Origin: Paramagnetospirillum caucaseum
GTDB lineage: Bacteria; Pseudomonadota; Alphaproteobacteria; Rhodospirillales; Magnetospirillaceae
Length of the DNA: 64,000 nt
Assembly: GCF_000342045.1 (NCBI RefSeq)
Contig: NZ_AONQ01000016.1
Span: forward strand, 1 to 64,000
Reading direction: 5' to 3'
The stretch's first letter is position 1, and each line of letters starts with the position of its first letter. Positions 24,927-52,123 of the stretch are shown here, one piece after another. A model generated the notes under the pieces. That model was given only the letters and a program-made list of their open reading frames with translations. It made no database searches and was not told where the DNA came from. The translations under genes were made by a program, and so were the position numbers.

Positions 24927-26627
24927 TCAGACCGCCGTCACCGAGATCCTGCCGTTCCAAGGAAGCCCAGACCGTGTGTGGACAAGGATGGCGAAGCAGG
25001 ATGCCGCCCGGCCATAGGCGGACCAATACGTCATCCCTTCCAGCGTAAACGGCGCGTCGGCGGTCATCAGCAACCGTCCGACCGGGGTGGTGATCATCAC
25101 GCCCTTTTCCTCCAGGCGGGCCGGGAACGGGGTCACCAGCCGCCGGGTGATCCGGTGCATGCCGTGTCCGTCGAGGCTATCGCTGATCTCCAGCCGGCCT
25201 CCGGCGAAGATCCAGGACCGCCCGGCCTCGGACACGCCCTGGGCGCGAAAACCCTGGTGCGAGAGTTTGACGACATCTCCCGCCTTGGCCAGGCAAGGCG
25301 CAGCCCTGCCCAGGCGGCGGCGAAAATCGGCGTCGTAATAGGGACGGTTGGGGGGGTAGGGATCGGCGCCGTCCACCTGAAGCAGGCCATGGACCTCCGC
25401 CGAGCGGTAGCGGGCCGCCTCGCCTGTTTCGCCATAGGCCCCGCGCCCCGGATCGATGAAGACGGGCTGGCCGCGCCAATGCAGTTCGGCGGCGCCCAGA
25501 TCCTGGTGGGCATGACCGGGCATGGCGGGCCAGCCCTGCGGCGAGGCGTGCCACAGGCCGCTCCATGGGCCGAAATCACCCCGCACCCAGCCCTCGGCCC
25601 GTAGCAGGCCCGGATCGGATGAAGGCGCTCCGTCGCGCATGGCCGTGACCGCCACCCGTTCCTCACCGGACAGCCAGGCGCCCCAGCCTTGCTCGAGCCC
25701 GCCGCCGGGCAGCAATCCGTCCAGGAATTCAGGGGGGCAGTCCGGGGAAATGTCGCCCACCAGCGGCAGTCCGCCGGGCAAGGCCAGATGGGGCAGGATT
25801 CCCAGACCCCGCAGGACGATGGCTTCCAGCTGGGCCGCCTCGGGCCGTCCATGCCGGCTTGCGGCCAGTTGGCACGACAGGTAGTTGCGGGTGAGCAGCA
25901 GATGGTAATGGCTGGATTGTTCGTTGAGGATGCCGGAGGGGCCGAACAGCCGTCCGGCCTCCGTCAGCAGGATGGCAAGGCCCAGCTTGGCGCAACGCTC
26001 CCAGCCGAGCGCCAGTCCGATCAGGTATAGGCCGCGACCGTTGTTGGCCAGATGGTTGCCGGTGTAATGCTGGCCGAAATACTCGAGGCGGGCGGCGATG
26101 GCCGGCGGGTGAGCCGCCAGCAGGGCGCCGGCACCCGGCGGCAGGGGGTGATGGCGGCTGTAATCCAGCAGGTTGGCGGCGCGCTCGGCGGCGGTGTAGG
26201 GATGCCAGGCCCAGGACTCGTCCGGTCGCCCATGGCGCTCCGCCCAACAGGCGAACAGACGCGCTACCCAGGCGGGGTTGGCCGAGGGGCCCAGCAGGGG
26301 CAGCCAGGCAAAGCGATGCACCGCCAATCTGGTCTCAAGGTCGGCCCAGTCCTGGAACAAGGCGGCCTCGCCGCCCGGCTCCAGGGCCAGGGTCGCCCCC
26401 GGAAGGGTGAGGGCGAGCGGCCCCTGGGGCAGGGGTTGCGGGGCCTCGGTCAGAGTGACGGGCGGCGCAGTCCCCAGATCGAAGGCGCCGTCATCGAGAT
26501 AGGGTGGCCGGTGAGGAGTAAAGGGCGGTGCTCCACTGGTGCGGCCCAGCACCCGCTCCAACAGCCAGCGGCGCAAGGCAGGGTCGTCGGCCAGTTGCCG
26601 CACCTTGCGGCGCAGGGCGCCGATCAT
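24927..26627 (-). CDS. Heparinase II/III-like family protein
   Basis: The 566-residue protein matches the heparinase II/III-like family. An alpha-helical N-terminal domain contains GNHLANNGRGLYLIG and NEQSSHYHLLLTRNY, which hold the conserved Asn/His positions. The beta-rich C-terminal half has the GHAHQDLGAAELHW motif. Members are polysaccharide lyases of uronic-acid glycans, and many copies in O-antigen or capsule loci have an unknown editing role. No signal peptide is seen, so it may be cytoplasmic or exported by another route. The start at 26627 forms an ATGA overlap with the upstream gene; an in-frame ATG farther upstream is inside that gene. Confidence 0.85.
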   Translation of the reverse strand: MIGALRRKVRQLADDPALRRWLLERVLGRTSGAPPFTPHRPPYLDDGAFDLGTAPPVTLTEAPQPLPQGPLALTLPGATLALEPGGEAALFQDWADLETRLAVHRFAWLPLLGPSANPAWVARLFACWAERHGRPDESWAWHPYTAAERAANLLDYSRHHPLPPGAGALLAAHPPAIAARLEYFGQHYTGNHLANNGRGLYLIGLALGWERCAKLGLAILLTEAGRLFGPSGILNEQSSHYHLLLTRNYLSCQLAASRHGRPEAAQLEAIVLRGLGILPHLALPGGLPLVGDISPDCPPEFLDGLLPGGGLEQGWGAWLSGEERVAVTAMRDGAPSSDPGLLRAEGWVRGDFGPWSGLWHASPQGWPAMPGHAHQDLGAAELHWRGQPVFIDPGRGAYGETGEAARYRSAEVHGLLQVDGADPYPPNRPYYDADFRRRLGRAAPCLAKAGDVVKLSHQGFRAQGVSEAGRSWIFAGGRLEISDSLDGHGMHRITRRLVTPFPARLEEKGVMITTPVGRLLMTADAPFTLEGMTYWSAYGRAASCFAILVHTRSGLPWNGRISVTAV

Positions 26628-28216
26628 GGCGTTCCCCCCGTCAGCCACTGGCGCCATGCTGCGGTCCCGGCGGGGATGAAGACATCGCTTTCGGCCAGCC
26701 CCGCCACCGGACGGGCCATGACCACCGCCTCGGCCAGCCCCTCTGCGTCGGCGGCGGGAACCGGCGGTCGGTCGGGCAGGATATCGTTGGCCAGAATCCC
26801 TTCCGGCAGGAAACGCACTACCGGCAGCCCGGCCAGCAGCGCTTCCAGCCCCACGGTGGTGGCGGCAAAGACCACGGCTCTCACCGCTCCAACTTGAGGC
26901 AGAGAGCCGGATGCAGCCTCCATGCCGGGTTCCGGCTTAAAGCCCACGGGGGTCATGGGGTGCTCGCGCACCAGCACGCGATGATCGGCGGCGCCCAGAC
27001 GGCGTCCGGCGGCGATCATCTGGCGCGCGATATCCGTCTGGGCGGGCAAGGCCAGGAACACCGGACCGGCGGGGTCGAAGGGGAGCGGCGCGGCGGGAGC
27101 GAAGCGCCAGACTCCGCCGATGACCAGATGGGAGGCGGGAATGCCCCACTCCGCCAATCGTCGGGCGGCGGCGGGACCGACGGCGCTGATGCGGTCGGGC
27201 AGTTCGAGGGCCGGATCATTCAGGGAATGGGCGGCGTGGTTCAATTCGTGGCGACCGATGGTGGCGTGCTGGCACCCGATCGTGGCGATGCCGCGCCGGC
27301 GGCAGGCCGCCGCGAAATCGCGCTCCCAGCCGTGATTCTCCCACGGCCAAGCGACGACCGCAGGCTTGGCGGCGTCCAGCCATCGCCTTTGGCAATGGAT
27401 CTGCCAGCGGATCATCGCCGCTTGTCCTCCCCCGCTTTCCAGGGCTGCGGCCCGACGCAGCAGCCATGAGTGGGGCCCGTGGCAGCGGGGCCGCCAGCGG
27501 GCGGACCACAGCCGTGTCAGGGCGTAGAGCGGTGAGCCGAAGCCATGCAGCGACAGGGTGCGGCCCCCGTCCTCGAGCGCCCGTGCCCGCTCCGGCAGGC
27601 AATCCACGTGCAGCATGCGGCCCAGGGACGGGATGTTCTGCATCAGGGGGCCGAAATAGGCGTCGAAGCCGTCGGTCCGGCTGGCGGGATGGCCATAGAC
27701 CAGCAGGACCGGCGTTCCCGGTCGGGTCAGACGGCGCTGTCGTCGCAGTGCGATTGCGGCCATGGCCATGCGCAGGCCGACGCGCAGCCTGGACGCTAGG
27801 CCACGCAGGGCCAAAAGGTACTCACGGCGGTGTAGTGGCGGTGGCTCTCCCTCGGCCCGTACACCGGGCAGGGCCGCAAGATGGCGAAAAAGCCATGGAT
27901 CGTCGCAGACCACCGCGACATCCTCGCTGCCGGCGGCCAGATCGCCAACCACCAGGGTCCAGGCCAGCATCAGGCCGAGATCGGAGATGGTTCCGGCGGC
28001 GCTGGGGGCATGGGCAAGCCGGGCATCCCCGCTTTGCCCGAGAGTGCGGGCCAGATCCAGCCAGACAGGGGCAGCCCGCTCGAAGGCGGCATCCAGGGCG
28101 GCAGCCATGCCGGGCAGACGGCGTGCCGGATCGGCAAGTGCCGGTGTTGCTGCTGCACACCAGCGCCGTCCACCGATTGTCGCGGTCGCCGTGGACGTCA
28201 CCAGCAGGACCGGCAT
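26624..28216 (-). CDS. Surface-carbohydrate biosynthesis protein, probable GT-B type (TIGR04326-like)
   Basis: I do not recognise a characterised homologue for this 530-residue protein. The second half has features of GT-B-fold transferases acting on surface glycans: WPWENHGWERDF, GCQHATIGRHELNH and a late ATTVGLEALLAGLPVVRFLP loop resembling the nucleotide-sugar-binding region. The pattern reminds me of the TIGR04326 surface-carbohydrate family; this is an inference from memory. The first 150 residues are Ala/Leu-rich with a short Rossmann-like start. It lies 10 nt after the methyltransferase gene and overlaps the heparinase gene by 4 nt. Confidence 0.62.
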   Translation of the reverse strand: MPVLLVTSTATATIGGRRWCAAATPALADPARRLPGMAAALDAAFERAAPVWLDLARTLGQSGDARLAHAPSAAGTISDLGLMLAWTLVVGDLAAGSEDVAVVCDDPWLFRHLAALPGVRAEGEPPPLHRREYLLALRGLASRLRVGLRMAMAAIALRRQRRLTRPGTPVLLVYGHPASRTDGFDAYFGPLMQNIPSLGRMLHVDCLPERARALEDGGRTLSLHGFGSPLYALTRLWSARWRPRCHGPHSWLLRRAAALESGGGQAAMIRWQIHCQRRWLDAAKPAVVAWPWENHGWERDFAAACRRRGIATIGCQHATIGRHELNHAAHSLNDPALELPDRISAVGPAAARRLAEWGIPASHLVIGGVWRFAPAAPLPFDPAGPVFLALPAQTDIARQMIAAGRRLGAADHRVLVREHPMTPVGFKPEPGMEAASGSLPQVGAVRAVVFAATTVGLEALLAGLPVVRFLPEGILANDILPDRPPVPAADAEGLAEAVVMARPVAGLAESDVFIPAGTAAWRQWLTGGTP

Positions 28217-28226
28217 GACGCGACTC

Positions 28227-28988
28227 CTACCCAGCTTTCCGCTGCGCCACTAGCAGCAGATTCTTGCCGAAGGGTGGGCGGATCAATGTTTCGATGGTGC
28301 GGGTGATCGGAATCCCGATCCGGTCGTAGAGGGCGATCTGCTTGGGGTTGAATTCGATCTTGCCCAGCCAGCGGTTCATTACCAGCCAGGGTAGAACCCC
28401 CAAAAGGTCGAAATAGCGGTTCTCCAGGACCGTCATCCCCGCCTTTTCCATCAACTCGGCCAGCCCGGGGCGCTGATAGCGGCGGAAGTGGCCGTAGAAT
28501 CGGTCCAGTTCGCTGAATAGGAACATCATGGCGGGAACGAAGATCACCAATTTCCCGCCTGGCCGCAGGGCTTGCCGGATGGAGTTGACCACGGCGAGGT
28601 CGTCCTCGATGTGCTCGAGCACGTTGATCATCACCACGGTGTCCAGGCTTGCCGCCTCGGCCTTGACCGACCATTCCTCGCACATGCGCGGAATCACCGT
28701 GATGCGCTCTTCTCCCGTGAAGCGGGCCTGCAGGTGGGCGAACAGCGGGGGCGAGGGCTCGACCACGTCGATATGCCGGACGGTCGGAAGACGCAGCAGA
28801 TCGGCGGTGAACGACCCGATGCCAGCCCCAATCTCGGCCACCTGCCCCTGGACGTGGGGAGAGATGGCGTCGACGATCCAGGTTCGATAGCGATGAAGAC
28901 TGGCAAGAATCTCCAGATCCTCGCCGCTGTACTCCGGCGGCGGCGGAAAGGTCAGATCGTCATCGTCGAGGGGGCCCACATGGGTCAT
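28227..28988 (-). CDS. Class I SAM-dependent methyltransferase
   Basis: The 253-residue protein shows SAM-binding motif I VAEIGAGIGSFTADLL (about residues 50-65), the acidic end of strand 2 (IDVVEPS), and TVVMINVLEHIEDD (motif IV region). This is typical of UbiE/COQ5-like methyltransferases. The acceptor is unknown, but the neighbours are glycan genes. I chose ATG 28988 because an AGGA lies 8 nt upstream; a GTG/ATG pair at 29006/29003 is also in frame and has no ribosome-binding site. The C-terminal PLVMNRWLGKIEFN-type segment may associate with the membrane. Confidence 0.85.
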   Translation of the reverse strand: MTHVGPLDDDDLTFPPPPEYSGEDLEILASLHRYRTWIVDAISPHVQGQVAEIGAGIGSFTADLLRLPTVRHIDVVEPSPPLFAHLQARFTGEERITVIPRMCEEWSVKAEAASLDTVVMINVLEHIEDDLAVVNSIRQALRPGGKLVIFVPAMMFLFSELDRFYGHFRRYQRPGLAELMEKAGMTVLENRYFDLLGVLPWLVMNRWLGKIEFNPKQIALYDRIGIPITRTIETLIRPPFGKNLLLVAQRKAG

Positions 28989-30935: not shown

Positions 30936-30937
30936 GC

Positions 30938-33791: not shown

Positions 33792-33793
33792 GA

Positions 33794-35719: not shown

Positions 35720-35862
35720 GGACCTATTCCTAAAAACCGGCCCATCACGGCGAGCTTGCCCACAAAATAAGATTGGGATTTGGCGAAGTAGGCAAGGTTC
35801 ACCGAGGCCATCCAGGCGATACCGGCCACGGCGATCCAGGAAGGTTTGTCATGATTTCTCAT
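35716..35862 (-). CDS. 48-residue single-pass membrane protein, unknown
   Basis: This short frame links two larger genes: its ATG overlaps the methyltransferase stop (ATGA at 35859-35862) and its TGA overlaps the next start (ATGA at 35716-35719). Such double 4-nt coupling is hard to explain by chance. The peptide starts MRNHDKPSW and has one hydrophobic helix (about residues 9-27, with Trp at both ends). A short basic/hydrophobic tail follows (VGKLAVMGRFLGIGP). I know no family for it. It may be a small partner of the GT-C protein encoded next to it. Confidence 0.7.
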   Translation of the reverse strand: MRNHDKPSWIAVAGIAWMASVNLAYFAKSQSYFVGKLAVMGRFLGIGP

Positions 35863-36536
35863 CGTTCCACGCACCAGACGTTGGTCATCACACCGTCCAC
35901 TGGCACCGAGGCCGAGGCCGAGGCCGGGTGGAGATAGCCGTAATGGCTGGTCCGCCGGGCGCCGGGGGTCAGGCGGCGCACCGTCTCCAGCGCTTCGGCG
36001 GAATTGATCAGGACATAGGGCAGGGTAGTGGAGGCGTAACGTTCATCCTTGCCGCCGAAATCCATGCGAAAGTACGAGCGGGCCTTGTCCTCGATGGTCG
36101 GGCCTTCCGTCTCGCGCAGATCCATCAGCAGACAGCCGGCGGTATGGGACCACGCCTGGGCAATGGTCCGGCGCCAGCCCTCGTGCAGATGCAGGATGCC
36201 GAGAACCAGGACTAAGTCGAAGGTTTCGTCGCCCAGGCAGGCCCAATCGGCGTCCTCGGTGATGGTCTGGAAGGTATGGCCGGGATGACGGGCGCGGGCG
36301 CGCTCGATCATGGCGGGATTGATGTCGATACCGGTATAGCGGAAGTCCTTCAGGTGCTCGGCCAGGACCGAGGCGAACCCGCCCTGGGCGCAGCCCACGT
36401 CCAGGACCCGCATCCCTTCCCGCATGCGGTCCTTGAGGAAGAACCACTCCGAGGCGTAGACCTGCCCCGTGTTGGACCGTTCCGTGTCGAAGAAGTCGAG
36501 AACCCCGTCAAGGCCCCAGGCATCGGCGTTGTTCAT
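35859..36536 (-). CDS. Class I SAM-dependent methyltransferase
   Basis: The 225-residue protein shows motif I RVLDVGCAQGGFASVLAEHL (about residues 39-58), YTGIDINPAMIERAR for motif II, and FDLVLVLGILHLHEGW for motif IV, so SAM binding is well supported. The acceptor is unknown. The C-terminus contains a GCC-GAG hexanucleotide repeat (near 35910-35930) encoding ASASAS, which could vary in length without changing frame. It overlaps both neighbours by 4 nt, so it belongs to a coupled string of genes. Confidence 0.85.
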   Translation of the reverse strand: MNNADAWGLDGVLDFFDTERSNTGQVYASEWFFLKDRMREGMRVLDVGCAQGGFASVLAEHLKDFRYTGIDINPAMIERARARHPGHTFQTITEDADWACLGDETFDLVLVLGILHLHEGWRRTIAQAWSHTAGCLLMDLRETEGPTIEDKARSYFRMDFGGKDERYASTTLPYVLINSAEALETVRRLTPGARRTSHYGYLHPASASASVPVDGVMTNVWCVER

Positions 36537-36787
36537 TCGTCCTCCCCGGCCTCTAATTCCCGCACCCGTCTGGCCGCCAGAGCATATTTCAGCGCCTCGA
36601 TCTCTACCAGACCCTCCAGGACGGCGATCCGCTCGACCGCCTCCACTCCGCGAGCCGCCTCTATCACCCGGATGGCGTAATCGGGCTTGAGACCCAGTTT
36701 GGCCAGCCGCCGCGCCAGGGTCAGGACCAGCCGGTCCTTGTCCGCCAGCATCGTTTCTGAATCGATATGATCATAGGGATTGCTCAT
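36533..36787 (-). CDS. 84-residue hypothetical protein
   Basis: This small acidic, helical protein (MSNPYDHIDSETMLADKDRL...) has a charged, heptad-like C-terminal half (RIAVLEGLVEIEALKYALAARRVRELE) that could form a coiled coil. No family is recognised. Evidence for translation is its tight packing: 1-nt TGATG overlap with the dehydrogenase upstream and ATGA overlap with the methyltransferase downstream. It may act as a subunit or chaperone for one of these. Confidence 0.72.
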   Translation of the reverse strand: MSNPYDHIDSETMLADKDRLVLTLARRLAKLGLKPDYAIRVIEAARGVEAVERIAVLEGLVEIEALKYALAARRVRELEAGEDE

Positions 36788-37740
36788 CAGCCTTGACCCG
36801 CGAAATCCAGGGGGTCGCGTCCGGCGTCCAGGCCGGCGATGGCGGCGCGGCCCATGGCCAGCACAGCCTCCTCGGCGGAACCGCCGATATGGGGGAGCGC
36901 CAGCATGTTGGGCAGGCGAAGGAGTTCGAGGTCGGTGGGTGGCTCCTCGGCGAAGACGTCGAAGGCGGCCCCGGCCAGATGGCCGCTCATCAGCAGGTGC
37001 TTGAGGGCGACCTCGTCGACCAATCCACCACGGGCCAGATTCAGCAAAATCGCCCCCTCACGCATGGACGCCAGCTTTTCCGCCGTCATCATCCCTCGGG
37101 TCGAGGCATCGAGCGGCAGGTGCAGGGTGACGATATCGGCGCGGGCCAGCAACTCGCCGAGGCTCACCGGTCGCACCCCGTGGGCGGCGTAGAAGTCCGG
37201 GAAATCCTTGATGTCATGGGCCAGCACCGTGCAGCCGAAGGCGCGCAGCAAGATAGCGAGGTCCTTGCCCACATGGCCGCAGCCGACGATGCCCACCACT
37301 CTTTCCGACAATTGCCGACCCATCAGCTGGCGCCACTGGCCGCCTCGAACCAGGGTGTTGGCCTCGGGCACATGGCGCAGAAGGGCGATGGCGGCGCAGA
37401 TGGTCAGTTCGGCCACCGAACGGCGGTTGACGCCGCCGGTCCAGCCCAGGCGTTTGTCCAGCCGGCTCATGGCCGCCAGGTCGATCATGTCGAGGCCGAC
37501 GCCGTACTTGCCCACCACCTTCAGCCCGGGAAGGCGCGACAACACGCTCTCGTCGAGCTTTTCCAGGGCGGTGATGGCCTTGGCGTGACCGTCCAGGAAA
37601 GTCACCAGGGCGTCGCCGGACAGCGACAGCCCCGCATCATTGAACGTTACGATCTCGTATCGGCTCATCAGTTCCGCCCGCAGGACCGGATGGCGGGAGA
37701 ACGAGCGGGATGCCACGGCAACGCGGTCGGTGCGGTTCAT
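36787..37740 (-). CDS. D-isomer-specific 2-hydroxyacid dehydrogenase
   Basis: The 317-residue NAD-dependent enzyme has the Rossmann motif GIVGCGHVGKDLA (about residues 140-152). The catalytic triad is visible as LNLARGG (Arg), FAEEPP (Glu) and LPHIGG (His). The family interconverts D-2-hydroxy acids and 2-keto acids, for example phosphoglycerate dehydrogenases. In this locus it may work on a sugar-acid intermediate. The start at 37740 has a GGGGG site 5-10 nt upstream and matches family length; the longer open frame upstream overlaps the acyltransferase. Confidence 0.88.
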   Translation of the reverse strand: MNRTDRVAVASRSFSRHPVLRAELMSRYEIVTFNDAGLSLSGDALVTFLDGHAKAITALEKLDESVLSRLPGLKVVGKYGVGLDMIDLAAMSRLDKRLGWTGGVNRRSVAELTICAAIALLRHVPEANTLVRGGQWRQLMGRQLSERVVGIVGCGHVGKDLAILLRAFGCTVLAHDIKDFPDFYAAHGVRPVSLGELLARADIVTLHLPLDASTRGMMTAEKLASMREGAILLNLARGGLVDEVALKHLLMSGHLAGAAFDVFAEEPPTDLELLRLPNMLALPHIGGSAEEAVLAMGRAAIAGLDAGRDPLDFAGQG

Positions 37741-37754
37741 CAATCCCCCAGCCT

Positions 37755-38834
37755 TCAAACCGTGATCAAGGCGCGGCGCCGGGCGGCGTGGGCGACCCAG
37801 GCATCGGCCCAGCGGCGTCCCAGACGAACGCCCGGCTTTTCGATAACCCTGTATATCAAGGCGGAAAGGACCAGCGAAAGGCCGACTTGCACCAGGAAGG
37901 CAAGGTAGGGATCGGCGGCCAGTGCCGGCCACAATTCCAGGCTTGCTGGCCGCATCAGGCTATGCAGCAGGTAGACCGAATAGCTGATCTCGCCCAGCAG
38001 CACCAAAGGCCGCCACGACAGATGGGTCGAACGGTTGAGTGCCAGGAACAGCAGCAGGGCGATGGCGAAGCCGGCGAAATGGGACAGCCAGTGGCGGGCG
38101 AAGGCCTGGGGATAATAAAGAGCCCAGCAGATGCCCAGGAGCAACAGGATCAAGGCACCCGCCGCCCGCCACTGGCGGGCCGGGGCGGGGGCTGCCAGAC
38201 GGCACCAGGCCCCGAACAGCATGAGCAGCATATAAAGGCCCCAACCCACGGGCAGACCCACTCCGAACTGGCGGCGGATGAAGGCGGCGGCGAGCAGGGC
38301 GATACCCAGGCTCGCCACCAGCCATCCCAGGCGCTCGGGTGTCTGGAGAATGCGGCAGAGGAACAGCAAGGTGCACAGGACGTAGAACACCATCTCCACC
38401 TGAAGGGTCCAATAAACTCCCAGCAGGTCTTCGACGCCGAGGAAGCGCTGACCGAGGGTGACGTTGACGGCGATGGCGGTCCAGCCCGGCGGACTGGGCA
38501 GAATGAACAGCGCCAGTATGATCGAGGCCCAATAGGCGGGATAAAGGCGCATCACCCGCGACACCGCGAACCGCCGAAGATGGGAATCGGGATGGCCGAG
38601 CAGGCTGGACGGCACCACATAGCCGCTGATCAGGAAAAACAGCAGCACCCCGGTCTGGCCGTGCTGGAACAGCCAGTCCAGGCCACTGACGATCTGGGCG
38701 CCCAGCGGGTCGGCGGGAACCGGCATGAGATGGGCCAGCATTACCATGCAGGCGGCGATGCCACGCAGGCCATCGATGGACGTGATCCTGAGGCCGTGAT
38801 CCGGATTGGTCGGAATTTGCTCTAGGAGATGCAC
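37755..38834 (-). CDS. Acyltransferase family 3 (OafA/NodX-type) membrane protein
   Basis: The 359-residue protein has about ten membrane segments and the acyltransferase-3 signature: SIDGLRGIAACMVMLAHL at the N-terminus, FFLISGYVV and RVMRLYPAYWAS. It would O-acetylate (or otherwise acylate) a surface glycan sugar using a cytoplasmic acyl donor. The GTG start at 38834 overlaps the DHQ-synthase-like gene by 13 nt. The C-terminal extension seen in SGNH-fused OafA proteins is absent. Confidence 0.88.
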   Translation of the reverse strand: MHLLEQIPTNPDHGLRITSIDGLRGIAACMVMLAHLMPVPADPLGAQIVSGLDWLFQHGQTGVLLFFLISGYVVPSSLLGHPDSHLRRFAVSRVMRLYPAYWASIILALFILPSPPGWTAIAVNVTLGQRFLGVEDLLGVYWTLQVEMVFYVLCTLLFLCRILQTPERLGWLVASLGIALLAAAFIRRQFGVGLPVGWGLYMLLMLFGAWCRLAAPAPARQWRAAGALILLLLGICWALYYPQAFARHWLSHFAGFAIALLLFLALNRSTHLSWRPLVLLGEISYSVYLLHSLMRPASLELWPALAADPYLAFLVQVGLSLVLSALIYRVIEKPGVRLGRRWADAWVAHAARRRALITV

Positions 38835-39898
38835 CGCACCTGCTCCAGATACTGGCCGCAGAGGGCCTTGAAGCCGTCATCGGCCCGGTGCACGCCCCGG
38901 ACGATCCGGCCCTCGGCATCGGGCAGGATAAGGGTCACCGAGCCGGCCCCGGTGTTCTTCTTGTCCTTGGCGAGCGCCGCCAGGACGCGGTCGAGCGGCA
39001 CCGGATGAGCCTCGAAGCCCTGGTAATTACGGGCCAGCACCCCATGCGCCGTCCGCCAATGGTCTTCCGTGCCGATGCCCATCCTCCAGCTCATCCAGTT
39101 GGCCATGTCGAGGCCGATGGTCACCGCGATGCCGTGGGGGATGGAGAAATCCGTGGCGGCTTCCATGGCGTGGCCGAAGGAATGGCCCAGGTTGAACACC
39201 AGGCGCGGGCCGGTATCGAACTCGTCCTTCTCGATATAGCCTTTCTTGATCTCCAGCGAGGCGCGGATGGCCGCCTCCATGGCCTTGGGATCGGACAGCA
39301 TGGAATCGTAACCGGCGGCGAAGCGGGTGAAGGCCTCGGGGCCGGCGATGGCATGGACCTTCAGCATCTCGCCGATGCCGGAACGGATATCACGCTCGTC
39401 CAGGGTGGCGAGAAAACGGGTGGAGAGATGAATCTCCGAGGGCGGCGTGAAGGTGCCCAGGATATTCTTGGCCGCGCCGCAATTGATCGAGCTCTTGGAG
39501 CCGATGCAGGAATCGCATTGGGCCAGCAGGGTGGTGGGGTAGAAGGTCCAGGGCACGCCGCGCAGCATGGTGGCGGCCAGGAAGCAGGTGATGTCCTGGA
39601 TGATGCCGCCGCCCATGGCCACCAGTCGGTGGTCGCGGCGCAAACCCTTGGCAACCAGATGCTCCACGTAGGATGGGAAGCGTTCCAGTGACTTGGCGGA
39701 TTCGGTGGCCTCGATCCTGAGCACGCTGGGACCGGCCAGCACTTTGTCCAACTCGGTCGCGTAAAGCTCGGCCACCCGCCCGTCGATGATGACGTGGAGA
39801 TTGGAGGGATCGGCGGCGTTCAGCCGCTGGGCGGCGTCGGGCTCGACATGGACGCAATAGGCGCCCTTGTGAGACTGGATGACCATCGGATCAGACAT
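38822..39898 (-). CDS. 3-dehydroquinate-synthase-like sugar phosphate cyclase
   Basis: The 358-residue protein aligns by eye along its length with AroB-type cyclases: GGGIIQDITCFLAATMLRG, PTTLLAQCDSCIGSKSSIN, KNILGTF and the metal-site motif NLGHSFGHAMEAA. Several positions differ from true DHQ synthase (GGGIIQD where AroB usually has GGGVVGD, GSKSSIN for GGKTAVN). This argues for a relative acting on another sugar phosphate, such as valiolone or DOI-type cyclases. A metal-NAD type III alcohol dehydrogenase is a less likely alternative. It is coupled to an SDR and lies close to a KdsB-like gene, two Gfo/Idh genes and an aminotransferase. Confidence 0.83.
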   Translation of the reverse strand: MSDPMVIQSHKGAYCVHVEPDAAQRLNAADPSNLHVIIDGRVAELYATELDKVLAGPSVLRIEATESAKSLERFPSYVEHLVAKGLRRDHRLVAMGGGIIQDITCFLAATMLRGVPWTFYPTTLLAQCDSCIGSKSSINCGAAKNILGTFTPPSEIHLSTRFLATLDERDIRSGIGEMLKVHAIAGPEAFTRFAAGYDSMLSDPKAMEAAIRASLEIKKGYIEKDEFDTGPRLVFNLGHSFGHAMEAATDFSIPHGIAVTIGLDMANWMSWRMGIGTEDHWRTAHGVLARNYQGFEAHPVPLDRVLAALAKDKKNTGAGSVTLILPDAEGRIVRGVHRADDGFKALCGQYLEQVRCIS

Positions 39899-40610
39899 TG
39901 GTGAAACCCCCGTCGATGGCGATGGTCTGGCCGCTGATGAAGGTGTTTTCCGGCCCCGCCAGCCAGGCGACGAAGGCCGCCACCTCTTCCGGGGTCCCCA
40001 GGCGCCTGGCCGGAACCTGGGCGACCAGTTCGCGGATGCCGTCCTCGCCCAGCACGCGCCGGGTCAGCTCGGTGTCGATGAAGCCGGGCGCCACGCAATT
40101 GACCAGCACGCCGTTTTCCGCCACCTCGGCGGCGAGGGCGGCGGTCAGCCCGGCGAGGGCGAATTTTGAGGCGGAATAGCTACCACGTTGCGCTTTCGAG
40201 ATGATCCCCCAGATGGAGCCCATATTGACGATACGGCCCCAGCCCCGCTCCCGCATGCCCGGTGCCAGCGCCTGCATCAGCAGCATGGGGGCGGTGACGT
40301 TGACCTGCTGGATGGCCAGGAAATCCGCCGGATCGATCTCGGCGAAGGGGGCGATCCTGTTGATGCCGGCATTGTTGACCAGGATGTCGAAGCCCTGTCC
40401 GGCCACAGATGCCGTGAAAGCCGTGGTCGCCTCGAGATCGGAGAAATCCACGGCCAGATAGCCGCAGCCCTCGGGGGCCGCGCCATCGGCCCTGGTGCCG
40501 GTCACCGTTACCTGGGCGCCATCGGCGGCCAGACGCAGCGCGATGGCCTTGCCGATACCGCGCGTGCCGCCGGTGATCAGGGCCTTGCGGCGCGAGAGGG
40601 GAAGGGTCAT
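39891..40610 (-). CDS. Short-chain dehydrogenase/reductase
   Basis: The 239-residue classical SDR has the cofactor motif TGGTRGIGKA, the structural NNAGIN motif and the catalytic Ser/YSASK pair. Closest in style to FabG-like 3-oxoacyl reductases, but its position between a methyltransferase and a sugar cyclase points to a sugar or cyclitol oxidoreductase. ATG 40610 overlaps the upstream stop by 4 nt (ATGA); the frame stays open upstream, inside the methyltransferase. Confidence 0.88.
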   Translation of the reverse strand: MTLPLSRRKALITGGTRGIGKAIALRLAADGAQVTVTGTRADGAAPEGCGYLAVDFSDLEATTAFTASVAGQGFDILVNNAGINRIAPFAEIDPADFLAIQQVNVTAPMLLMQALAPGMRERGWGRIVNMGSIWGIISKAQRGSYSASKFALAGLTAALAAEVAENGVLVNCVAPGFIDTELTRRVLGEDGIRELVAQVPARRLGTPEEVAAFVAWLAGPENTFISGQTIAIDGGFTNV

Positions 40611-41698
40611 GCCACCTTCTCCACCACGATGTTCCAGCCGAAGCCCATGAATTGTCCCAACCACAGTTCCAGTGCCGTCTCCGGCACGAATTCCGCCGCG
40701 CCATAGACCAGCTCGGCGCCGGGATGGGGCCGGTGGCCCAGCGCCTTCAGCACCGCGTTGCGCAGCTGGGTCAGTCGCGGAATGGCGAAATTGTCGAACT
40801 GGAAGCTGTTCTTGCGCAAGGACACCACGCGGAAGGCCCGCAGGGCCTGCCTCAATTCGGTCTCGGAATAAATCCGGGTGAAGGGATTGCGGGTCTGGCC
40901 GAACTTTGGCTTGCCCTCGGTGACCCGACCCACCCATTCGGCCTCGGGCCAGCGGAACATCTCGCCCGAGAACAGGCCGCGCGGCACGATATTGGCCCAG
41001 AACACCGCCGAATGGCGGGCATAGAGCATGAGCACGGCCTTGCCGCCGGGCTTCAGGACCCGGTGCACCTCGGCCAGGGCCTGATCGGTGTCGCTGGAAT
41101 GGTGCAGCACGCCGTTGGAATAGACGATGTCGAACACCCCGTCCCGGAACGGCAGGTTCTCGGCGTCGCCCTGATAGGCGCGGCCCTCGTCGCCCTTGAC
41201 CAGCGAGAGGCGCAACGCGGTGGAGATGGCGCGCTGGGGCGTGATGTCCACGGCGGTGACCGAGGCGCCATGGCGCTTGAACAGGCAGGAATGGCCGCCG
41301 CCGCCGGGGCCGATCTCCAGGACCTGGCTGCCCGCCAATTGGGCCAGGGGCATCTCGACCACCGGCAGCAGGCCGCGCCGCCTGAACAGATCCTCGGTGA
41401 GGTCGAGAAGATGCTCGAGGCGCTCAGGCGTCAGGCCCTTATCGGTGGGGCCGTAAAGCTGCTCGTAGAGATCGCCCCACCAGGCGCGGATATTGCTCTT
41501 GGCCTCGCTGGCGATGGACTCGGGCGGCAGCAGGGCAGCGATGTGGCGGTCCTGGTCCACGGGGAAGCGGGCGCCGCAGCCGCAGGCCAGATCCTCACCG
41601 GATAGGGCCAGGGCACCCTGGCGGCACACCGGGCAGCGCAGCGCCCCGGCGGCGTCGCGCTCCAGCAGGGTGCGCCAGCCGCTCAATACTTGCCCCAC
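40607..41698 (-). CDS. Methyltransferase with N-terminal zinc-ribbon-like segment
   Basis: The 363-residue protein starts with a Trm112-like cysteine motif (RCPVCRQG...ACGCGARFPVD, about residues 21-48) and continues into a class I SAM domain with VLEIGPGGGGHSCLF and FDIVYSNGVLHHSSD. The target is unknown, presumably a sugar or lipid-linked glycan. The GTG at 41698 overlaps the KdsB-like gene by 16 nt; a TTG at 41686 has the better-placed GGGG site and is an alternative start four residues later. Confidence 0.85.
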   Translation of the reverse strand: MGQVLSGWRTLLERDAAGALRCPVCRQGALALSGEDLACGCGARFPVDQDRHIAALLPPESIASEAKSNIRAWWGDLYEQLYGPTDKGLTPERLEHLLDLTEDLFRRRGLLPVVEMPLAQLAGSQVLEIGPGGGGHSCLFKRHGASVTAVDITPQRAISTALRLSLVKGDEGRAYQGDAENLPFRDGVFDIVYSNGVLHHSSDTDQALAEVHRVLKPGGKAVLMLYARHSAVFWANIVPRGLFSGEMFRWPEAEWVGRVTEGKPKFGQTRNPFTRIYSETELRQALRAFRVVSLRKNSFQFDNFAIPRLTQLRNAVLKALGHRPHPGAELVYGAAEFVPETALELWLGQFMGFGWNIVVEKVA

Positions 41699-42453
41699 AG
41701 CACGTCATCCTGCATGGCCGCCTCGACGATGCCGATATCGTGGGGGCTGTCCACGGAATAGCTGGGGCGGAAGGGATAGGGGGCGATGTGCTGATGGAAG
41801 CCATGGTCGTAGAGCCGGTTGGAATCACACGCTTCCTTGATCTCCAGCGGGCTGGGGGGAAGATTGGTGAACAGCTTCAGGAACTCCCACTTGAAGCCGA
41901 AGATGCCGTAGATACGCCGGGCGCCTAAGTCCGGGCCGAAGGACTTGCAATGGGGGATGGGCTGGCGCGAGGTGTAGAGCACCCGGCCCGACAGGTCGGA
42001 AATGATCTTCAGCGCGTCGGGATTGCGGAACTGGGCCTCGTCGACGATGTCCATGGCCAGCATGGTGCCGCGCACCTCGCCCGGACGCTCCTCCATGGGG
42101 GCGATGGTGGCTTTGATCATGTCGGGATGCATCATGGGCTCGTCACCCTGGACGTTCAGCACGATGTCGTCGTCGGCCACCTCGATGCCGCATTTGGTGG
42201 CCGCTTCGGCGACCCGGTCCAGGGCGCGGGTATGGCTGTCGCTGGTCATGATCACCGGATAGCCCTTGCTCTCGGCAAAGGCCCGGATCTCCTCGTCGCA
42301 GGTGCAGATGGCCAGCACGTCGAAGCGGGGGAACAATTTGGCCCGCTCGAAGACGTGCTCGATCATGGGGCGGCCCATGATGGGAAACAGCGGCTTGCCG
42401 GGAAAGCGGCTGGCGGCCATGCGGGCGGGGATGAGGCCGATGATCTTGGTCAT
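41683..42453 (-). CDS. KdsB-like cytidylyltransferase
   Basis: The 256-residue protein resembles CMP-Kdo synthetase: IPARMAASRFPGKPL at the CTP-binding N-terminus and NVQGDEPMMHPDMI in the core. It differs where KdsB normally reads SGTDRxAE; here it is RALDRVAE. It also carries an unusual insertion-like stretch (IKEACDSNRLYDHGFHQH) near the C-terminus. I infer a CMP-activating enzyme for an acidic sugar other than plain Kdo. It is coupled by 4-nt overlap to a Gfo/Idh oxidoreductase. Confidence 0.83.
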   Translation of the reverse strand: MTKIIGLIPARMAASRFPGKPLFPIMGRPMIEHVFERAKLFPRFDVLAICTCDEEIRAFAESKGYPVIMTSDSHTRALDRVAEAATKCGIEVADDDIVLNVQGDEPMMHPDMIKATIAPMEERPGEVRGTMLAMDIVDEAQFRNPDALKIISDLSGRVLYTSRQPIPHCKSFGPDLGARRIYGIFGFKWEFLKLFTNLPPSPLEIKEACDSNRLYDHGFHQHIAPYPFRPSYSVDSPHDIGIVEAAMQDDVLWGKY

Positions 42454-43505
42454 AGAGGAGTCTCCGGCGGGCAATCGGTGAGGCGCCAGCGTGCCTTCCA
42501 GGCGGGATCGGCGCAATAGATGCGATAGACCAGCTCCATGGTCTTCAGGGCGTCGTCGCTGGACCCGGCCAGGATGGGGCCGCCGTTGAGAATCGCCTCG
42601 GCGAATTCGGCGATTTCGTCCTCCCAGCTGGGGTCCCGGTTGTAGCGGGTGGTCTGTTCCTTGGGATCGCCCTGGTCGTCGTCGCCCGCCCACAGCACGG
42701 TCAGGGTCTCGGCACCATAGCTCTTGGAGCCCGACAGGATGCCCGACAGGATCAGGGCGCCCTTCTCACAGGTTATTTCGAGATTGAAACGATGTCGCCA
42801 CTGGGTGGCAGTGGAATGCAGCATGGCGACGCAGCCCTGGTCCGAGCGCATCAGCGCATAGGCATTGTCCTCCACATCGTGCTTCCAGAAATCGTTGGAG
42901 ACGATGCTGCTGACCTCATGGAATTCGCCGCCGAAGAGGCGCATCAGATCCACCATGTGGATGCCCTGGTCGAGCAGGATGCCGCCGCCGGCCACGCTCC
43001 GCTGGGTGCGCCAGTCTGATTGCTGTCCGAAGCTGATGAACTGGCTCTTGCCGTAGACGCCGCGCATGTTGAGCACGCGGCCCAGCGAGCCGGCCCGCAC
43101 CAGGGCCAGCGCGTCACGCACCGAATCATGATAGCGGTGGTTGAAGCCGTATTTGAGCCGCAGACCGGGATGGCGGGTTTCGGCGGCGATCACCCGGCGG
43201 ATATCGGCCACGTCGCGGCCCGGCGGCTTCTCGCAGAAGACGTGCAGGCCGCGCTCCAGCCCGGCGATGGTGACGTCGGCGGCCACGTCGTTGGTCAGGC
43301 ACACCAGCAGGGCGTCGAGTTTTTCCGCCTCCAGCAGGCGTTGAGGGGTGCGATAGTGGCGCACACCGTCCTCCATCACGCCTTCCGACTCGAAGGCGCG
43401 GTCGCACACCGCCACGGTTTGCATGTCGGTGCGGCGGTCGATCACCTCGCGGCGGCGCCTGCCCACCACGCCGTAACCCGCGATGCCGACCCTCAAGGGT
43501 ATCAC
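42450..43505 (-). CDS. Gfo/Idh/MocA-family oxidoreductase
   Basis: The 351-residue NAD(P)-dependent dehydrogenase has the N-terminal VGIAGYGVVG nucleotide-binding fold, the EKPPG motif with the catalytic lysine, and LDQGIHMVDLMR in the substrate domain. Members oxidise or reduce sugar hydroxyls, often at C3 of nucleotide-linked or free sugars or inositols. It starts at GTG 43505, overlapping the second family member by 4 nt (GTGA). Both copies may perform successive or alternating oxidation steps on the same sugar. Confidence 0.88.
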   Translation of the reverse strand: MIPLRVGIAGYGVVGRRRREVIDRRTDMQTVAVCDRAFESEGVMEDGVRHYRTPQRLLEAEKLDALLVCLTNDVAADVTIAGLERGLHVFCEKPPGRDVADIRRVIAAETRHPGLRLKYGFNHRYHDSVRDALALVRAGSLGRVLNMRGVYGKSQFISFGQQSDWRTQRSVAGGGILLDQGIHMVDLMRLFGGEFHEVSSIVSNDFWKHDVEDNAYALMRSDQGCVAMLHSTATQWRHRFNLEITCEKGALILSGILSGSKSYGAETLTVLWAGDDDQGDPKEQTTRYNRDPSWEDEIAEFAEAILNGGPILAGSSDDALKTMELVYRIYCADPAWKARWRLTDCPPETPL

Positions 43506-44590
43506 GGCTTGGGAGTCCGGTAGAGATCGGACACCGTGTCATTGGCGCGGCCCAGCCGGGTGGACTGTTCGTCGGAATCCACCGTGACCCAGGCGCCGCC
43601 CGCCTCGTCCGAGCGGTAGAAGGAATGCCACAGCTTAAGGCTGGCCAGGCAATCCTCGCGGCTGACCTGGAAGGGACGCACGCCGTTCAGCGCGGCGACC
43701 AGGCCTTCATAGACGGCGATGTGGCCGAAGCCGTAGGCGTCGGGGATCTTTTCCGAATACTCGGCGCAGGCATTGGGATCGGGGGTGAAGACCTGCAGCT
43801 CGTTGACCGCCCAGCCGCCCAGCTGGGCCAGGCCCTTGGAGCCGACGATGGACAGCGAGGCCTCGAAATCGTCGGGCCGGGCGGCGGTGGTCACTTCCAG
43901 CGAGCCCACCGCGCCGGAGGGGTAGGTGTAGGTGGAGACCACGGTGTCCTCCACCTCGATTTCGGCGCCCAGCGTACGCATGGTGGCCGACACCGATTCC
44001 ACCTCGCCACCCAGATAGCGCAGCAGGTCGATATGGTGGATACCCTGGTTGGAGATGGCGCCGCCGTCATGGCTGAAGGTGCCGCGCCAGGGGGCGAGGT
44101 CGTAATAACGCTGCGGCCGGCACCAGCGCAGGCGCACGTTCATGATGCGGATGTCGCCCAGCTCGCCGTTCTCCAGCGAGTGCTTGACCTTCTGCACCGC
44201 CTTGTTGTGGCGGTTCTGGAACACCGGGAAGATCTGCCGGCCCTGGCGGGCGGCGAGATCGTAGGCGGCGTGCAGTTGCTCGGGCCGCATGAAGGTGGGC
44301 TTTTCCACGATCAGATGCTTGGAATAACGCTCCATCACCTCCATGGCGTGCTCGAAATGCATGCCGGACGGGGTGATGACGGCCACCACGTCGATCTCGG
44401 GCATGCTTTGCAGCATCTCGTGGTAATTGGTGAACCACTTGACGCCGAATTCGTCGCCATAGGCCTTGGCCTTCTCCGCCACCAGATCGCAGACGGCGAC
44501 GATGGTGCCGCCGTCCACCTTGGCGATGGACCGCAGGTGATGGCCGGCGACGCGGCCACAGCCGATCAGGGCAACCTTGACAGCGCTCAT
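43502..44590 (-). CDS. Gfo/Idh/MocA-family oxidoreductase
   Basis: The 362-residue enzyme shows VALIGCGRVAGHH, the EKP motif (LIVEKPTFMRPEQ) and SNQGIHHIDLLRYLGG. It resembles WlbA/WbpB-type UDP-N-acetylglucosaminuronate 3-dehydrogenases, whose 3-keto product feeds an aminotransferase. Here an aminotransferase (44587-45663) is directly upstream and coupled by an ATGA overlap, consistent with a keto-then-amino step. Substrate identity is inference only. Confidence 0.88.
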   Translation of the reverse strand: MSAVKVALIGCGRVAGHHLRSIAKVDGGTIVAVCDLVAEKAKAYGDEFGVKWFTNYHEMLQSMPEIDVVAVITPSGMHFEHAMEVMERYSKHLIVEKPTFMRPEQLHAAYDLAARQGRQIFPVFQNRHNKAVQKVKHSLENGELGDIRIMNVRLRWCRPQRYYDLAPWRGTFSHDGGAISNQGIHHIDLLRYLGGEVESVSATMRTLGAEIEVEDTVVSTYTYPSGAVGSLEVTTAARPDDFEASLSIVGSKGLAQLGGWAVNELQVFTPDPNACAEYSEKIPDAYGFGHIAVYEGLVAALNGVRPFQVSREDCLASLKLWHSFYRSDEAGGAWVTVDSDEQSTRLGRANDTVSDLYRTPKP

Positions 44591-45663
44591 GTCCGCACAC
44601 TCTCCTCGATACGGGTGATGACCGGCCCGAACAATTCCGGCGTGGTTGCCGAGAAGCGGGAGAAACCCTTAAGACAGGGTTCCGCGAAATCCTTGCGGTA
44701 ATACACCAGATCGGACAGCGCCGCATGCACCTTCTCCGCGTGCGCGCCGAAGGCCACATGCAGGAAGTTGCCGCCGCCCCGCAACGTGCGCAGGCCCAGG
44801 GCTTCCATACGGTCGAGGAACAGGGTCTTGCCGGCGGAAAGCCGCGTCACCGAGGCCTCCATGGCGTCGGCGTGGTCCAGCATGCGCTCGAACACCGCCA
44901 CCGCCATGGTGCCGGTCTCGTACATGGGCCGCACCTTGTGCAGCGCTATCGCCACCTCTTCCGAGGCGATGGCGTAACCGATGCGCACCCCGGCCATGCC
45001 CCAGGCCTTGCCGGTGGAGCGCGCCACCACCAGGTGGGGATGGCGGGTGATCAGGGGCACCACGCTGTCGGCATGGAAGGGATGATAGGCCTCGTCCACT
45101 AAGATGATGGCGCCCACCTCACCGGCGGCGGCGATGATCGCCTCCAACTCGTCGGGAGGGATGATGGTGCCGGTGGGGCTGTCGGGATTGGGCAGGCAGA
45201 CCACGCGGGGCCGTTCCTTGGCAATGGCGGCGATGATCCGCTCGGGCGGAAGGGCGGGACCCTTGTCCGAAGCCTCATACTCGAGCCCGACGGTCCGGGC
45301 GCCGTACATCTTCGAATAGACCGGATACATGGCGAAGGTGGGGACGGGGTGCAGCACTTTGTCACCCACCGAGACATAGGCCTCGAACACCGAGCGGATC
45401 ACCCCGTCCGAGCCGTGGGCCAGGCACAGGTTGTGCGGCAAGCAGCCCACCCAGGCAGCCAGCTTGGCGTAAAGCCTGGCGGCTTCGGGATAGGTGAAGA
45501 AGGTCTCGGGCGGCAGGCTGGCCACCACCCCGGCCACCACCTTGGACAGTTCGGGATCGGTGTTCTCGTTCTTGTCGAGCCACAGCATGGCGGGGTTGCG
45601 GCTTGCGTCCTTGGTCCAGTCGGGACGGGACACCTCGGCGAGCTGGGGGCGGGGATGGATCAT
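44587..45663 (-). CDS. HisC-like class I/II aminotransferase
   Basis: The 358-residue PLP enzyme belongs to the histidinol-phosphate aminotransferase-like group: LPNPDSPTGTIIPPDEL, VDEAYHPF and the PLP-lysine segment RSTGKAWGMAGVRIGYA. HisC relatives in sugar loci can act on keto sugars or cyclitol ketones. The gene sits 4 nt downstream of the ABC transporter gene and overlaps the Gfo/Idh gene by 4 nt. DegT-type sugar aminotransferases are a different family, which makes this an unusual choice for a glycan locus. Confidence 0.85.
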   Translation of the reverse strand: MIHPRPQLAEVSRPDWTKDASRNPAMLWLDKNENTDPELSKVVAGVVASLPPETFFTYPEAARLYAKLAAWVGCLPHNLCLAHGSDGVIRSVFEAYVSVGDKVLHPVPTFAMYPVYSKMYGARTVGLEYEASDKGPALPPERIIAAIAKERPRVVCLPNPDSPTGTIIPPDELEAIIAAAGEVGAIILVDEAYHPFHADSVVPLITRHPHLVVARSTGKAWGMAGVRIGYAIASEEVAIALHKVRPMYETGTMAVAVFERMLDHADAMEASVTRLSAGKTLFLDRMEALGLRTLRGGGNFLHVAFGAHAEKVHAALSDLVYYRKDFAEPCLKGFSRFSATTPELFGPVITRIEESVRT

Positions 45664-47497: not shown

Positions 47498-47590
47498 TAT
47501 ACGACTCTCGTCGAAGGGGCCGGGATGGCTCGGTGGTGTTCAGAAAACCTACTAGCATTCCATCCAGGCGCAAGTGGTCCGGCTCATCGG

Positions 47591-48463: not shown

Positions 48464-48464
48464 G

Positions 48465-49589: not shown

Positions 49590-49591
49590 CG

Positions 49592-52121: not shown

Positions 52122-52123
52122 GC

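What the first reader, a model, noticed from the sequence alone, without database searches (positions are those of the whole stretch)
36787..45663. Possible undescribed pathway to a CMP-activated carbocyclic or aminated acidic sugar
Seen: eight of nine adjacent, overlapping genes look metabolic or glycan-modifying. They encode a HisC-like aminotransferase, two Gfo/Idh/MocA dehydrogenases, a KdsB-like cytidylyltransferase, a Zn-ribbon methyltransferase, an SDR, a DHQ-synthase-like cyclase, an acyltransferase and a 2-hydroxyacid dehydrogenase. Known: DHQ-synthase relatives make cyclitol ketones (valiolone, DOI types), Gfo/Idh plus aminotransferase pairs create amino groups at keto positions, and KdsB-type enzymes activate acidic sugars as CMP derivatives. 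Inference: together they could build an aminated cyclitol or modified octulosonate for a surface glycan. I know no described pathway with this exact set; no NeuB-type or KdsA-type condensing enzyme is present.
Basis: partly seen in the sequence, partly recalled or inferred. Interest (0 to 1): 0.75.

Follow-up and report, generated by a model that had tools for sequence, protein, structure and literature searches.

The report
Likely CMP-activated carbocyclic sugar pathway
A nine-gene bacterial operon carries a relative of dehydroquinate synthase that is not the shikimate enzyme, beside a CMP-sugar synthetase whose sugar-site residues change together with that cyclase, so the two likely work in one pathway that would make a CMP-activated ring-carbon (carbocyclic), probably aminated, acidic sugar for the cell surface.

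Summary
All nine genes are there, minus strand, with overlapping or near-touching ends. The cyclase passes NCBIfam TIGR04425 (uncharacterised), fails the aroB cut-off, and the genome has a separate aroB. It keeps AroB's catalytic residues, unlike two 2-deoxy-scyllo-inosose synthases, which points to an acid substrate. Among 80 named relatives an SDR gene is found in 76. A PF02348 cytidylyltransferase lies within 10 kb in 36 of 37 fully flanked loci, against 5 of 17 control glycan loci. New here: cyclase-less relatives keep GFO1, GFO2, KdsB and HADH but have a HAD phosphatase beside KdsB (22 of 25 genomes, 24 by a direct scan; 0 of 16 cyclase genomes). In the window and its nearest relatives SDR-cyclase lies in that place. 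Only 3 of 258 KdsB columns separate the two sets (I/V181, Y/G182, S/Y231); two align with E. coli KdsB H181 and L182, the third lies four residues before metal ligand D235. All three held in 20 of 20 further sequences. GFO2 and HADH have no such column. On the KdsB tree this is one switch, not many. I conclude that cyclase and KdsB probably share one pathway: ring closure with phosphate loss, reduction, amination, CMP activation. The product is inferred and untested.

The parts
44587..45663 (-). AT: HisC-like class I aminotransferase (PF00155), predicted to put an amine on a ketone of the sugar
   Evidence: hisC equivalog 202 bits, below its cut-off 276.55; orthologues (48% identity or more) in 14 of 199 genomes of the order, 13 with the cyclase
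43502..44590 (-). GFO1: Gfo/Idh/MocA dehydrogenase; cyclase-less relatives carry a 5-residue insertion that follows its P283, cyclase loci do not
   Evidence: (best PDB 3q2i, 3q2k)
42450..43505 (-). GFO2: Gfo/Idh/MocA dehydrogenase, in nearly every cyclase locus; no column follows cyclase presence
   Evidence: 64 of 80 loci; 36 of 37 full loci
41683..42453 (-). KDSB: KdsB-like CTP:acid-sugar cytidylyltransferase (PF02348), type A
   Evidence: kdsB equivalog 144.9 bits, below its cut-off 155.2; subfamily NF003952 passed (206.7, cut-off 193)
41908..41913 (-). KDSB codons I181-Y182, aligned with E. coli KdsB H181-L182; V-G in cyclase-less relatives
   Evidence: 18 against 18 rows; 20 of 20 further sequences
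41761..41763 (-). KDSB codon S231, four residues before the metal ligand position D235; Y in cyclase-less relatives
40607..41698 (-). MT: SAM methyltransferase with an N-terminal zinc-ribbon-like stretch (by eye)
   Evidence: PF08241; not kept in all relatives
39891..40610 (-). SDR: short-chain dehydrogenase, constant partner of the cyclase
   Evidence: in 76 of 80 loci, directly upstream on the same strand in 72 of those 76
38822..39898 (-). CYC: TIGR04425 AroB-related cyclase
   Evidence: (468.6 bits, cut-off 400)
39191..39247 (-). CYC stretch K218 to N236 with K218, R232 and N236, the AroB-type residues that two DOI synthases lack in part
   Evidence: K 80/80, R 80/80, N 79/80; roles recalled
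37755..38834 (-). ACT: membrane acyltransferase (PF01757)
   Evidence: not part of the conserved neighbourhood clusters
36787..37740 (-). HADH: D-2-hydroxyacid dehydrogenase, phosphoglycerate-dehydrogenase-like
   Evidence: in 32 of 37 full cyclase loci and next to the phosphatase in cyclase-less relatives
26627..28249 (-). TIGR04326-like protein (reading frame between stops), also found near GFO1 in relatives; possible transferase
   Evidence: TIGR04326 48.4 bits, below its cut-off 250; no Pfam

Best explanation
This is a surface-glycan operon in which an AroB-related cyclase with its SDR partner likely replaces a phosphatase step, so that the neighbouring KdsB-like enzyme would CMP-activate a carbocyclic, probably aminated, acidic sugar instead of an ordinary ulosonic acid. 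Shown: the cyclase lies outside AroB but keeps the AroB catalytic residues. Cyclase-less relatives have a HAD phosphatase beside KdsB; in the window and its nearest relatives SDR-cyclase lies in that place. KdsB pocket-region residues 181, 182 and 231 and a GFO1 loop change with cyclase presence; GFO2 and HADH have no such column. Inferred: GFO2 and HADH act on a precursor common to both versions. CYC oxidises a 2-keto acid phosphate, eliminates its phosphate and closes the ring (a C7, DAHP-like acid is the size that gives a six-ring). SDR reduces the product; GFO1 with AT exchanges a hydroxyl for an amine. KDSB transfers CMP to the carbon that bears OH and COOH, the carbocyclic counterpart of an ulosonic acid's anomeric carbon. 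MT and ACT decorate. No step has been assayed.
For: TIGR04425 passed and aroB failed; separate aroB; fingerprint and own branch. PF02348 enzyme near the cyclase in 36 of 37 full loci against 5 of 17 controls. HAD phosphatase within 6 kb of KDSB in 22 of 25 cyclase-less and 0 of 16 cyclase genomes; a direct scan adds two of the three misses. Three KDSB columns and one GFO1 insertion separate the sets, none in GFO2 or HADH; 20 of 20 further KDSB sequences agree. AT in 13 cyclase genomes of 14.
Against: The KDSB pattern is one switch on its tree, and independent pairs on the HADH and GFO trees are too few for significance. KDSB type A, GFO1, GFO2 and HADH occur without the cyclase in 25 genomes, so KDSB does not need it. 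In several other type A loci (L078, L081, L085, L099, L100, L116) KDSB lies on the far side of AT-GFO1 and not next to SDR-cyclase. One AT genome, G099, lacks the cyclase. A CMP ester on a tertiary carbon without ring oxygen would be a poor glycosyl donor (chemical reasoning). No condensing enzyme is in the cluster.
Confidence: 0.45

Rival explanations
1. Two separate sugars of one glycan: SDR-cyclase with GFO2 and HADH makes a carbocycle that is not joined through CMP, while AT-GFO1-KDSB makes an ordinary CMP-amino-ulosonate. They lie together because both serve one polymer.
For: KDSB type A with GFO1 exists without the cyclase, and SDR-cyclase-GFO2 exists with quite different CMP-transferases. 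Unrelated CDP-sugar genes also lie nearby (RfbF in 27 loci).
Against: The phosphatase is missing where the cyclase is present, and KDSB residues track the cyclase.
Confidence: 0.25
2. Phospholyase only: CYC oxidises and eliminates phosphate but the product re-closes on oxygen, giving an unusual deoxy-ulosonic acid that KDSB activates in the ordinary way. No carbocycle is made.
For: Explains the phosphatase exchange and normal CMP chemistry; TIGR04425's own name stresses the phospholyase.
Against: All positions matched to AroB's metal, lysine and histidine sites are kept, and AroB closes a carbocycle with that set.
Confidence: 0.17
3. Ketose- or aldose-phosphate cyclase of the valiolone or DOI kind, acting on a neutral sugar phosphate; a GmhA-like sugar isomerase gene in some loci would feed it.
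For: GmhA-like SIS genes in 15 of 37 full loci.
Against: R232 and N236 are kept in 80 and 79 of 80 rows, whereas two DOI synthases and one other non-AroB homologue (Gloeothece) differ at both and a Streptomyces homologue at R232. No EEVS or DDGS sequence was aligned.
Confidence: 0.08
4. A second 3-dehydroquinate synthase that merely feeds quinate-like metabolites or backs up aroB.
For: Same catalytic residues as AroB; DAHP is available in the cell.
Against: Separate aroB, failed aroB cut-off, own branch with changed pocket positions, constant glycan-type neighbours in many phyla.
Confidence: 0.05

Closest known systems
TIGR04425, AroB-related putative sugar phosphate phospholyase (cyclizing)
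   Same: The cyclase is a member by score.
   Different: NCBI lists it as a hypothetical equivalog; no function, partners or specificity code were found in the papers searched.
AroB and the sugar phosphate cyclase superfamily (DHQS, aminoDHQS, EEVS, EVS, DDGS, DOIS, EboD)
   Same: Fold and catalytic residues. EboD is another uncharacterised branch (PMC5133447, passages).
   Different: Own branch, changed pocket positions, neighbours are CMP-transferases and Gfo/Idh dehydrogenases; the members named are not described as feeding CMP-sugars in the passages I saw.
CMP-Kdo synthesis (KdsA-KdsC-KdsB)
   Same: The cyclase-less version has a HAD phosphatase next to a KdsB-like enzyme, the logic of KdsC-KdsB (pathway recalled).
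   Different: No KdsA in the cluster; in the cyclase version the phosphatase is gone; the kdsB cut-off is not met.
KdnA/KdnB 8-amino-Kdo pathway of Shewanella (recalled; listing only)
   Same: Dehydrogenase plus aminotransferase feeding a KdsB.
   Different: Here the dehydrogenase is Gfo/Idh and the aminotransferase HisC-like; a true cyclase homologue is present.
WlbA/WbpB-type Gfo/Idh dehydrogenase with aminotransferase (recalled)
   Same: GFO1's best solved relatives are 3q2i and 3q2k, which I recall as WlbA.
   Different: The aminotransferase here is HisC-like, and the partner nucleotide would be CMP and not UDP.

Membership tests
AroB (3-dehydroquinate synthase) | score over the aroB equivalog cut-off (TIGR01357, 305 bits) | tested here: not met
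   245.2 bits
AroB (3-dehydroquinate synthase) | catalytic residues R130, D146, K152, N162, E194, K197, K250, R264, N268, H271, H275, H287, K356 (A. nidulans numbering and roles recalled) | tested here: met
   12 of the 13 positions in 80 of 80 rows, N268 in 79 of 80
AroB (3-dehydroquinate synthase) | groups with AroB and is the genome's only copy | tested here: not met
   own branch (SH-aLRT 98, quick tree); another DHQ synthase on contig C55
TIGR04425 | score over the cut-off (400 bits) | tested here: met
   468.6 bits
2-deoxy-scyllo-inosose synthase | non-AroB residues at the R264 and N268 positions | tested here: not met
   R and N here; A/G and E in two annotated DOI synthases
[quoted passage not shown]
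   no EEVS sequence could be aligned; 4p53 is only the rank 46 Foldseek match
KdsB (CMP-Kdo synthetase) | score over the kdsB equivalog cut-off (TIGR00466, 155.2 bits) | tested here: not met
   144.9 bits; subfamily NF003952 is passed, 206.7 against 193
KdsB (CMP-Kdo synthetase) | E. coli KdsB residues H181, Y185, E210, Q211 (sugar-site role recalled) and metal ligands D100, D235 | tested here: inconclusive
   by the alignment I, F, D, S at the first four; D at 235 and the NVQGDEP stretch kept
HisC | score over the hisC cut-off (TIGR01141, 276.55 bits) | tested here: not met
   202 bits
CMP-activated carbocyclic sugar pathway (proposed) | cyclase and CMP-transferase act on one substrate line | tested here: inconclusive
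   linkage and residue changes agree but rest on one switch in the KDSB tree
CMP-activated carbocyclic sugar pathway (proposed) | carbocyclic CMP-sugar detected | not testable with these tools
   needs assay or glycan analysis

The most novel reading that the evidence does not exclude
Bacteria of about a dozen phyla make CMP-activated carba-ulosonic acids, the carbocyclic twins of Kdo-like sugars. A descendant of AroB turns phosphate removal into ring closure, and the CMP-transferase has re-tuned its sugar pocket (positions 181, 182, 231) to match; an aminated version and a pyruvate-aldolase version exist.
Probability: 0.35. Interest if true: 0.85.

Novelty: new variant of a known kind. Interest (0 to 1): 0.64.

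Why it matters
CMP activation is known to me for ulosonic acids and some phosphonates, not for carbocycles. If the reading holds, a widespread uncharacterised family (TIGR04425) gets a role, a class of surface sugars would have been missed in glycan analysis, and a three-residue code in a KdsB-like enzyme would predict from sequence which strains make it. It makes the function of TIGR04425 directly testable with a few purified enzymes.

Tried and rejected
A plain AroB or a DOI-type reading was rejected by cut-offs, tree and fingerprint. Linked inheritance of the whole operon as the only cause of the KDSB pattern was weakened: HADH and GFO2 have no separating column and their trees mix the two sets more (5 and 3 changes against 1). 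A sign test on independent pairs had too few pairs to decide (2, 1 and 1 on supported branches). Plasmid records hold no close relative of the cyclase (115 records, all under 60% identity). The structure model and Foldseek only confirmed the DHQS fold. Literature: no held paper has TIGR04425 or the other four terms; some searches gave listings in which I saw no description of this pathway. I read passages of PMC5133447, PMC4426668, PMC3149649 and PMC2901514, no whole paper. Only open-licence papers are held.
Full report
What is there. Nine minus-strand genes fill 36787-45663, with seven overlapping junctions and one 14-base gap. Pfam confirms all nine classes. The aminotransferase fails the hisC cut-off, the cytidylyltransferase the kdsB cut-off and the cyclase the aroB cut-off; the cyclase passes TIGR04425, 'AroB-related putative sugar phosphate phospholyase (cyclizing)', with 468.6 bits against 400. 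The same genome has another, higher-scoring DHQ synthase on contig C55 and, among five PF02348 matches, a higher-scoring one on C69. NeuB-, PF00793- and HpcH-type enzymes exist in the genome, on other contigs.

The cyclase. A quick tree of 80 cyclase rows (79 named relatives that pass a length filter, and the window's) and 14 references puts the 80 on one side of a branch (SH-aLRT 98; two references have very long branches). Positions matched to AroB's metal, phosphate and carboxylate sites are kept: R113, D129, K135, N145, E177, K180, K218, R232, H239, H243, H255 and K314 in 80 of 80, N236 in 79. Two annotated DOI synthases differ at R232 and N236, and the Gloeothece homologue at both as well; a Streptomyces halstedii homologue differs at R232. 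Other positions have changed: S134, S136, S137 and D228 in all 80, V181 in 78, H182 and F227 in 77, I257 in 66 (the AroB position matching F227 varies among AroBs too). Residue roles and A. nidulans numbering are recalled. An AlphaFold model (pLDDT 87.4, 17 sequences) has DHQS structures as its best Foldseek matches, with DOI synthase at rank 7 and EEVS at rank 46. I take this as a prediction of a 2-keto acid phosphate substrate and AroB-like chemistry with a changed pocket.

Neighbourhoods. A scan of genome contigs found 145 relatives, of which the tool kept the best 80 loci. By record names they fall in 13 phyla, 46 in Pseudomonadota and 3 without a phylum. Clustering their ORFs finds SDR in 76 of 80, GFO2 in 64, HADH in 50 plus 9 of a second cluster, and a KdsB cluster in 42; these counts include short contigs. 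SDR is directly upstream of the cyclase in 72 of the 76. Among 37 loci with at least 9 kb on both sides, SDR is in 36, GFO2 in 36, HADH in 32 and a PF02348-type enzyme in 36, L117 being the miss (own HMM, seeds partly from these loci). Of 43 loci with less flank, 22 show one. In 17 glycan loci centred on CDP-glucose dehydratase, in genomes without the cyclase, the same HMM finds it in 5; two short control loci and one locus chosen for AT were left out. The control comes from one order, the cyclase loci from many phyla.

Two alternative partners. In the KdsB cluster, type A (17 loci) goes with AT or GFO1 in 15; the two exceptions are short contigs. Type B (25 loci) goes with an HpcH/HpaI-type aldolase gene in 22. 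No locus has both an aldolase (25 loci) and AT or GFO1 (17 loci). Several loci without the KdsB cluster have NeuA/PseF-like enzymes instead.

The phosphatase exchange. Of 199 genomes of the order, 24 have a cyclase over the cut-off and one more, G007, a piece at a contig end. KDSB type A (57% identity or more) is in 41 genomes: 16 with a cyclase, counting G007, and 25 without. In 20 cyclase-less loci (fetched) GFO1 and GFO2 are found in all, KDSB in 18 (the other two stretches end before it) and a HAD phosphatase beside KDSB in 17 of those 18, one of them a piece at a contig end; L153 (G025) has none. In the 12 loci where KDSB, phosphatase and HADH are all seen, the phosphatase lies between the other two. 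Genome-wide, a listed phosphatase match lies within 6 kb of KDSB in 22 of 25 cyclase-less and 0 of 16 cyclase genomes (Fisher p 9e-9, genomes not independent). The list was cut; the direct scan adds G124 and the cut gene of G110, leaving G025. In 99 cyclase loci scanned (named and unnamed, partly the same contigs) the only hit was one of 45 bits in L048. The phosphatase resembles phosphoglycolate phosphatase. In the window and in L038, L040, L048, L049 and L053 SDR-cyclase stands between KDSB and HADH, the place of the phosphatase; in L078, L081, L085, L099, L100 and L116 KDSB lies elsewhere, after AT-GFO1.

The specificity columns. Aligning KDSB type A of 18 cyclase and 18 cyclase-less loci, 3 of 258 columns separate the sets completely: 181 (I/V), 182 (Y/G) and 231 (S/Y). 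GFO1 has 7 of 370 such columns, five of them one insertion present in the 18 cyclase-less and absent from the 16 cyclase rows. GFO2 (16 against 18 rows) and HADH (16 against 12) have none. Twenty further KDSB sequences (9 with cyclase, 11 without, the same order; four of the 11 from one genome) all agree. By the alignment to 1vh1, 181 and 182 match H181 and L182 of E. coli KdsB and 231 lies four residues before D235. PMC2901514 (passages) names Gln98, Asp100 and Asp235 as metal ligands of L-CKS, and PMC3149649 (passages) places Kdo binding in the C-terminal domain. That H181 itself touches Kdo is recalled.

How strong this is. In the KDSB tree the 18 cyclase-less rows are one clade (98/95): 1 change against 12.3 in shuffles. 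The perfect match is therefore one switch that has been kept, not many. The HADH tree needs 5 changes, at least 2 on supported branches; GFO1 and GFO2 need 3, at least 1. KDSB thus follows the cyclase more closely than its neighbours do, but independent pairs are too few for significance. AT matches at 48% identity or more are in 14 genomes, 13 with the cyclase; two weaker matches (G019 40%, G082 30%) are in genomes without it. The exception among the 14, G099, has AT directly before a PseF-like cytidylyltransferase, with a HAD-type hydrolase nearby.

Reading. Genes whose sequence shows no column tied to the cyclase (GFO2, HADH) probably act before it or on a shared precursor; those that do (GFO1, KDSB) probably act after it. 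The simplest pathway is ring closure with phosphate loss by CYC, reduction by SDR, oxidation and amination by GFO1 and AT, and CMP transfer by KDSB. An AroB-type ring closure of a C7 2-keto acid leaves a carbon with OH and COOH, the carbocyclic counterpart of an ulosonic acid's anomeric carbon, which would explain why a KdsB-type enzyme is the partner. This is inference from family chemistry. The main chemical objection is that such a CMP ester is a poor glycosyl donor, which keeps the phospholyase-only rival alive.

Novelty. TIGR04425 is catalogued, but I found no function in the papers searched. The module logic, the phosphatase exchange and the three-residue code were not in any listing I saw; the parts are of known kinds.

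Noticed in passing
26627-28249 (minus), and L047, L050, L141-L160: A protein without Pfam domains, weakly like TIGR04326 (surface carbohydrate biosynthesis, 48.4 bits against a cut-off of 250), lies near GFO1 in many relatives and 9 kb downstream of the operon here; stronger TIGR04326 members lie by the cyclase in other loci (L081, L106). It could be the transferase for the CMP sugar.
   Followed up: partly
L184:9443-11277: In G099, which lacks the cyclase, an AT relative (51-52% identity) overlaps the start of a PseF-like cytidylyltransferase, with a 2-hydroxyacid-dehydrogenase-like ORF (by eye) and a HAD hydrolase upstream.
   Followed up: partly
L071, L074, L080, L087, L114: A third form of the neighbourhood: SDR-cyclase-GFO2 with a YhcH-like protein (by eye), another cytidylyltransferase and, in some, NeuB and NeuC, without the KdsB cluster.
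   Followed up: partly
L032, L033, L034, L035: Cyclase homologues below the TIGR04425 cut-off share part of its changed pocket residues and may be further undescribed branches; L034 and L035 are from the window's own family.
   Followed up: no
29019-36536 and 45668-53989: The operon lies in a large glycan-type region: family 2 glycosyltransferase, asparagine-synthase-like protein, two PMT-like membrane proteins, methyltransferase, ABC transporter and radical SAM proteins.
   Followed up: partly
   Followed up: no
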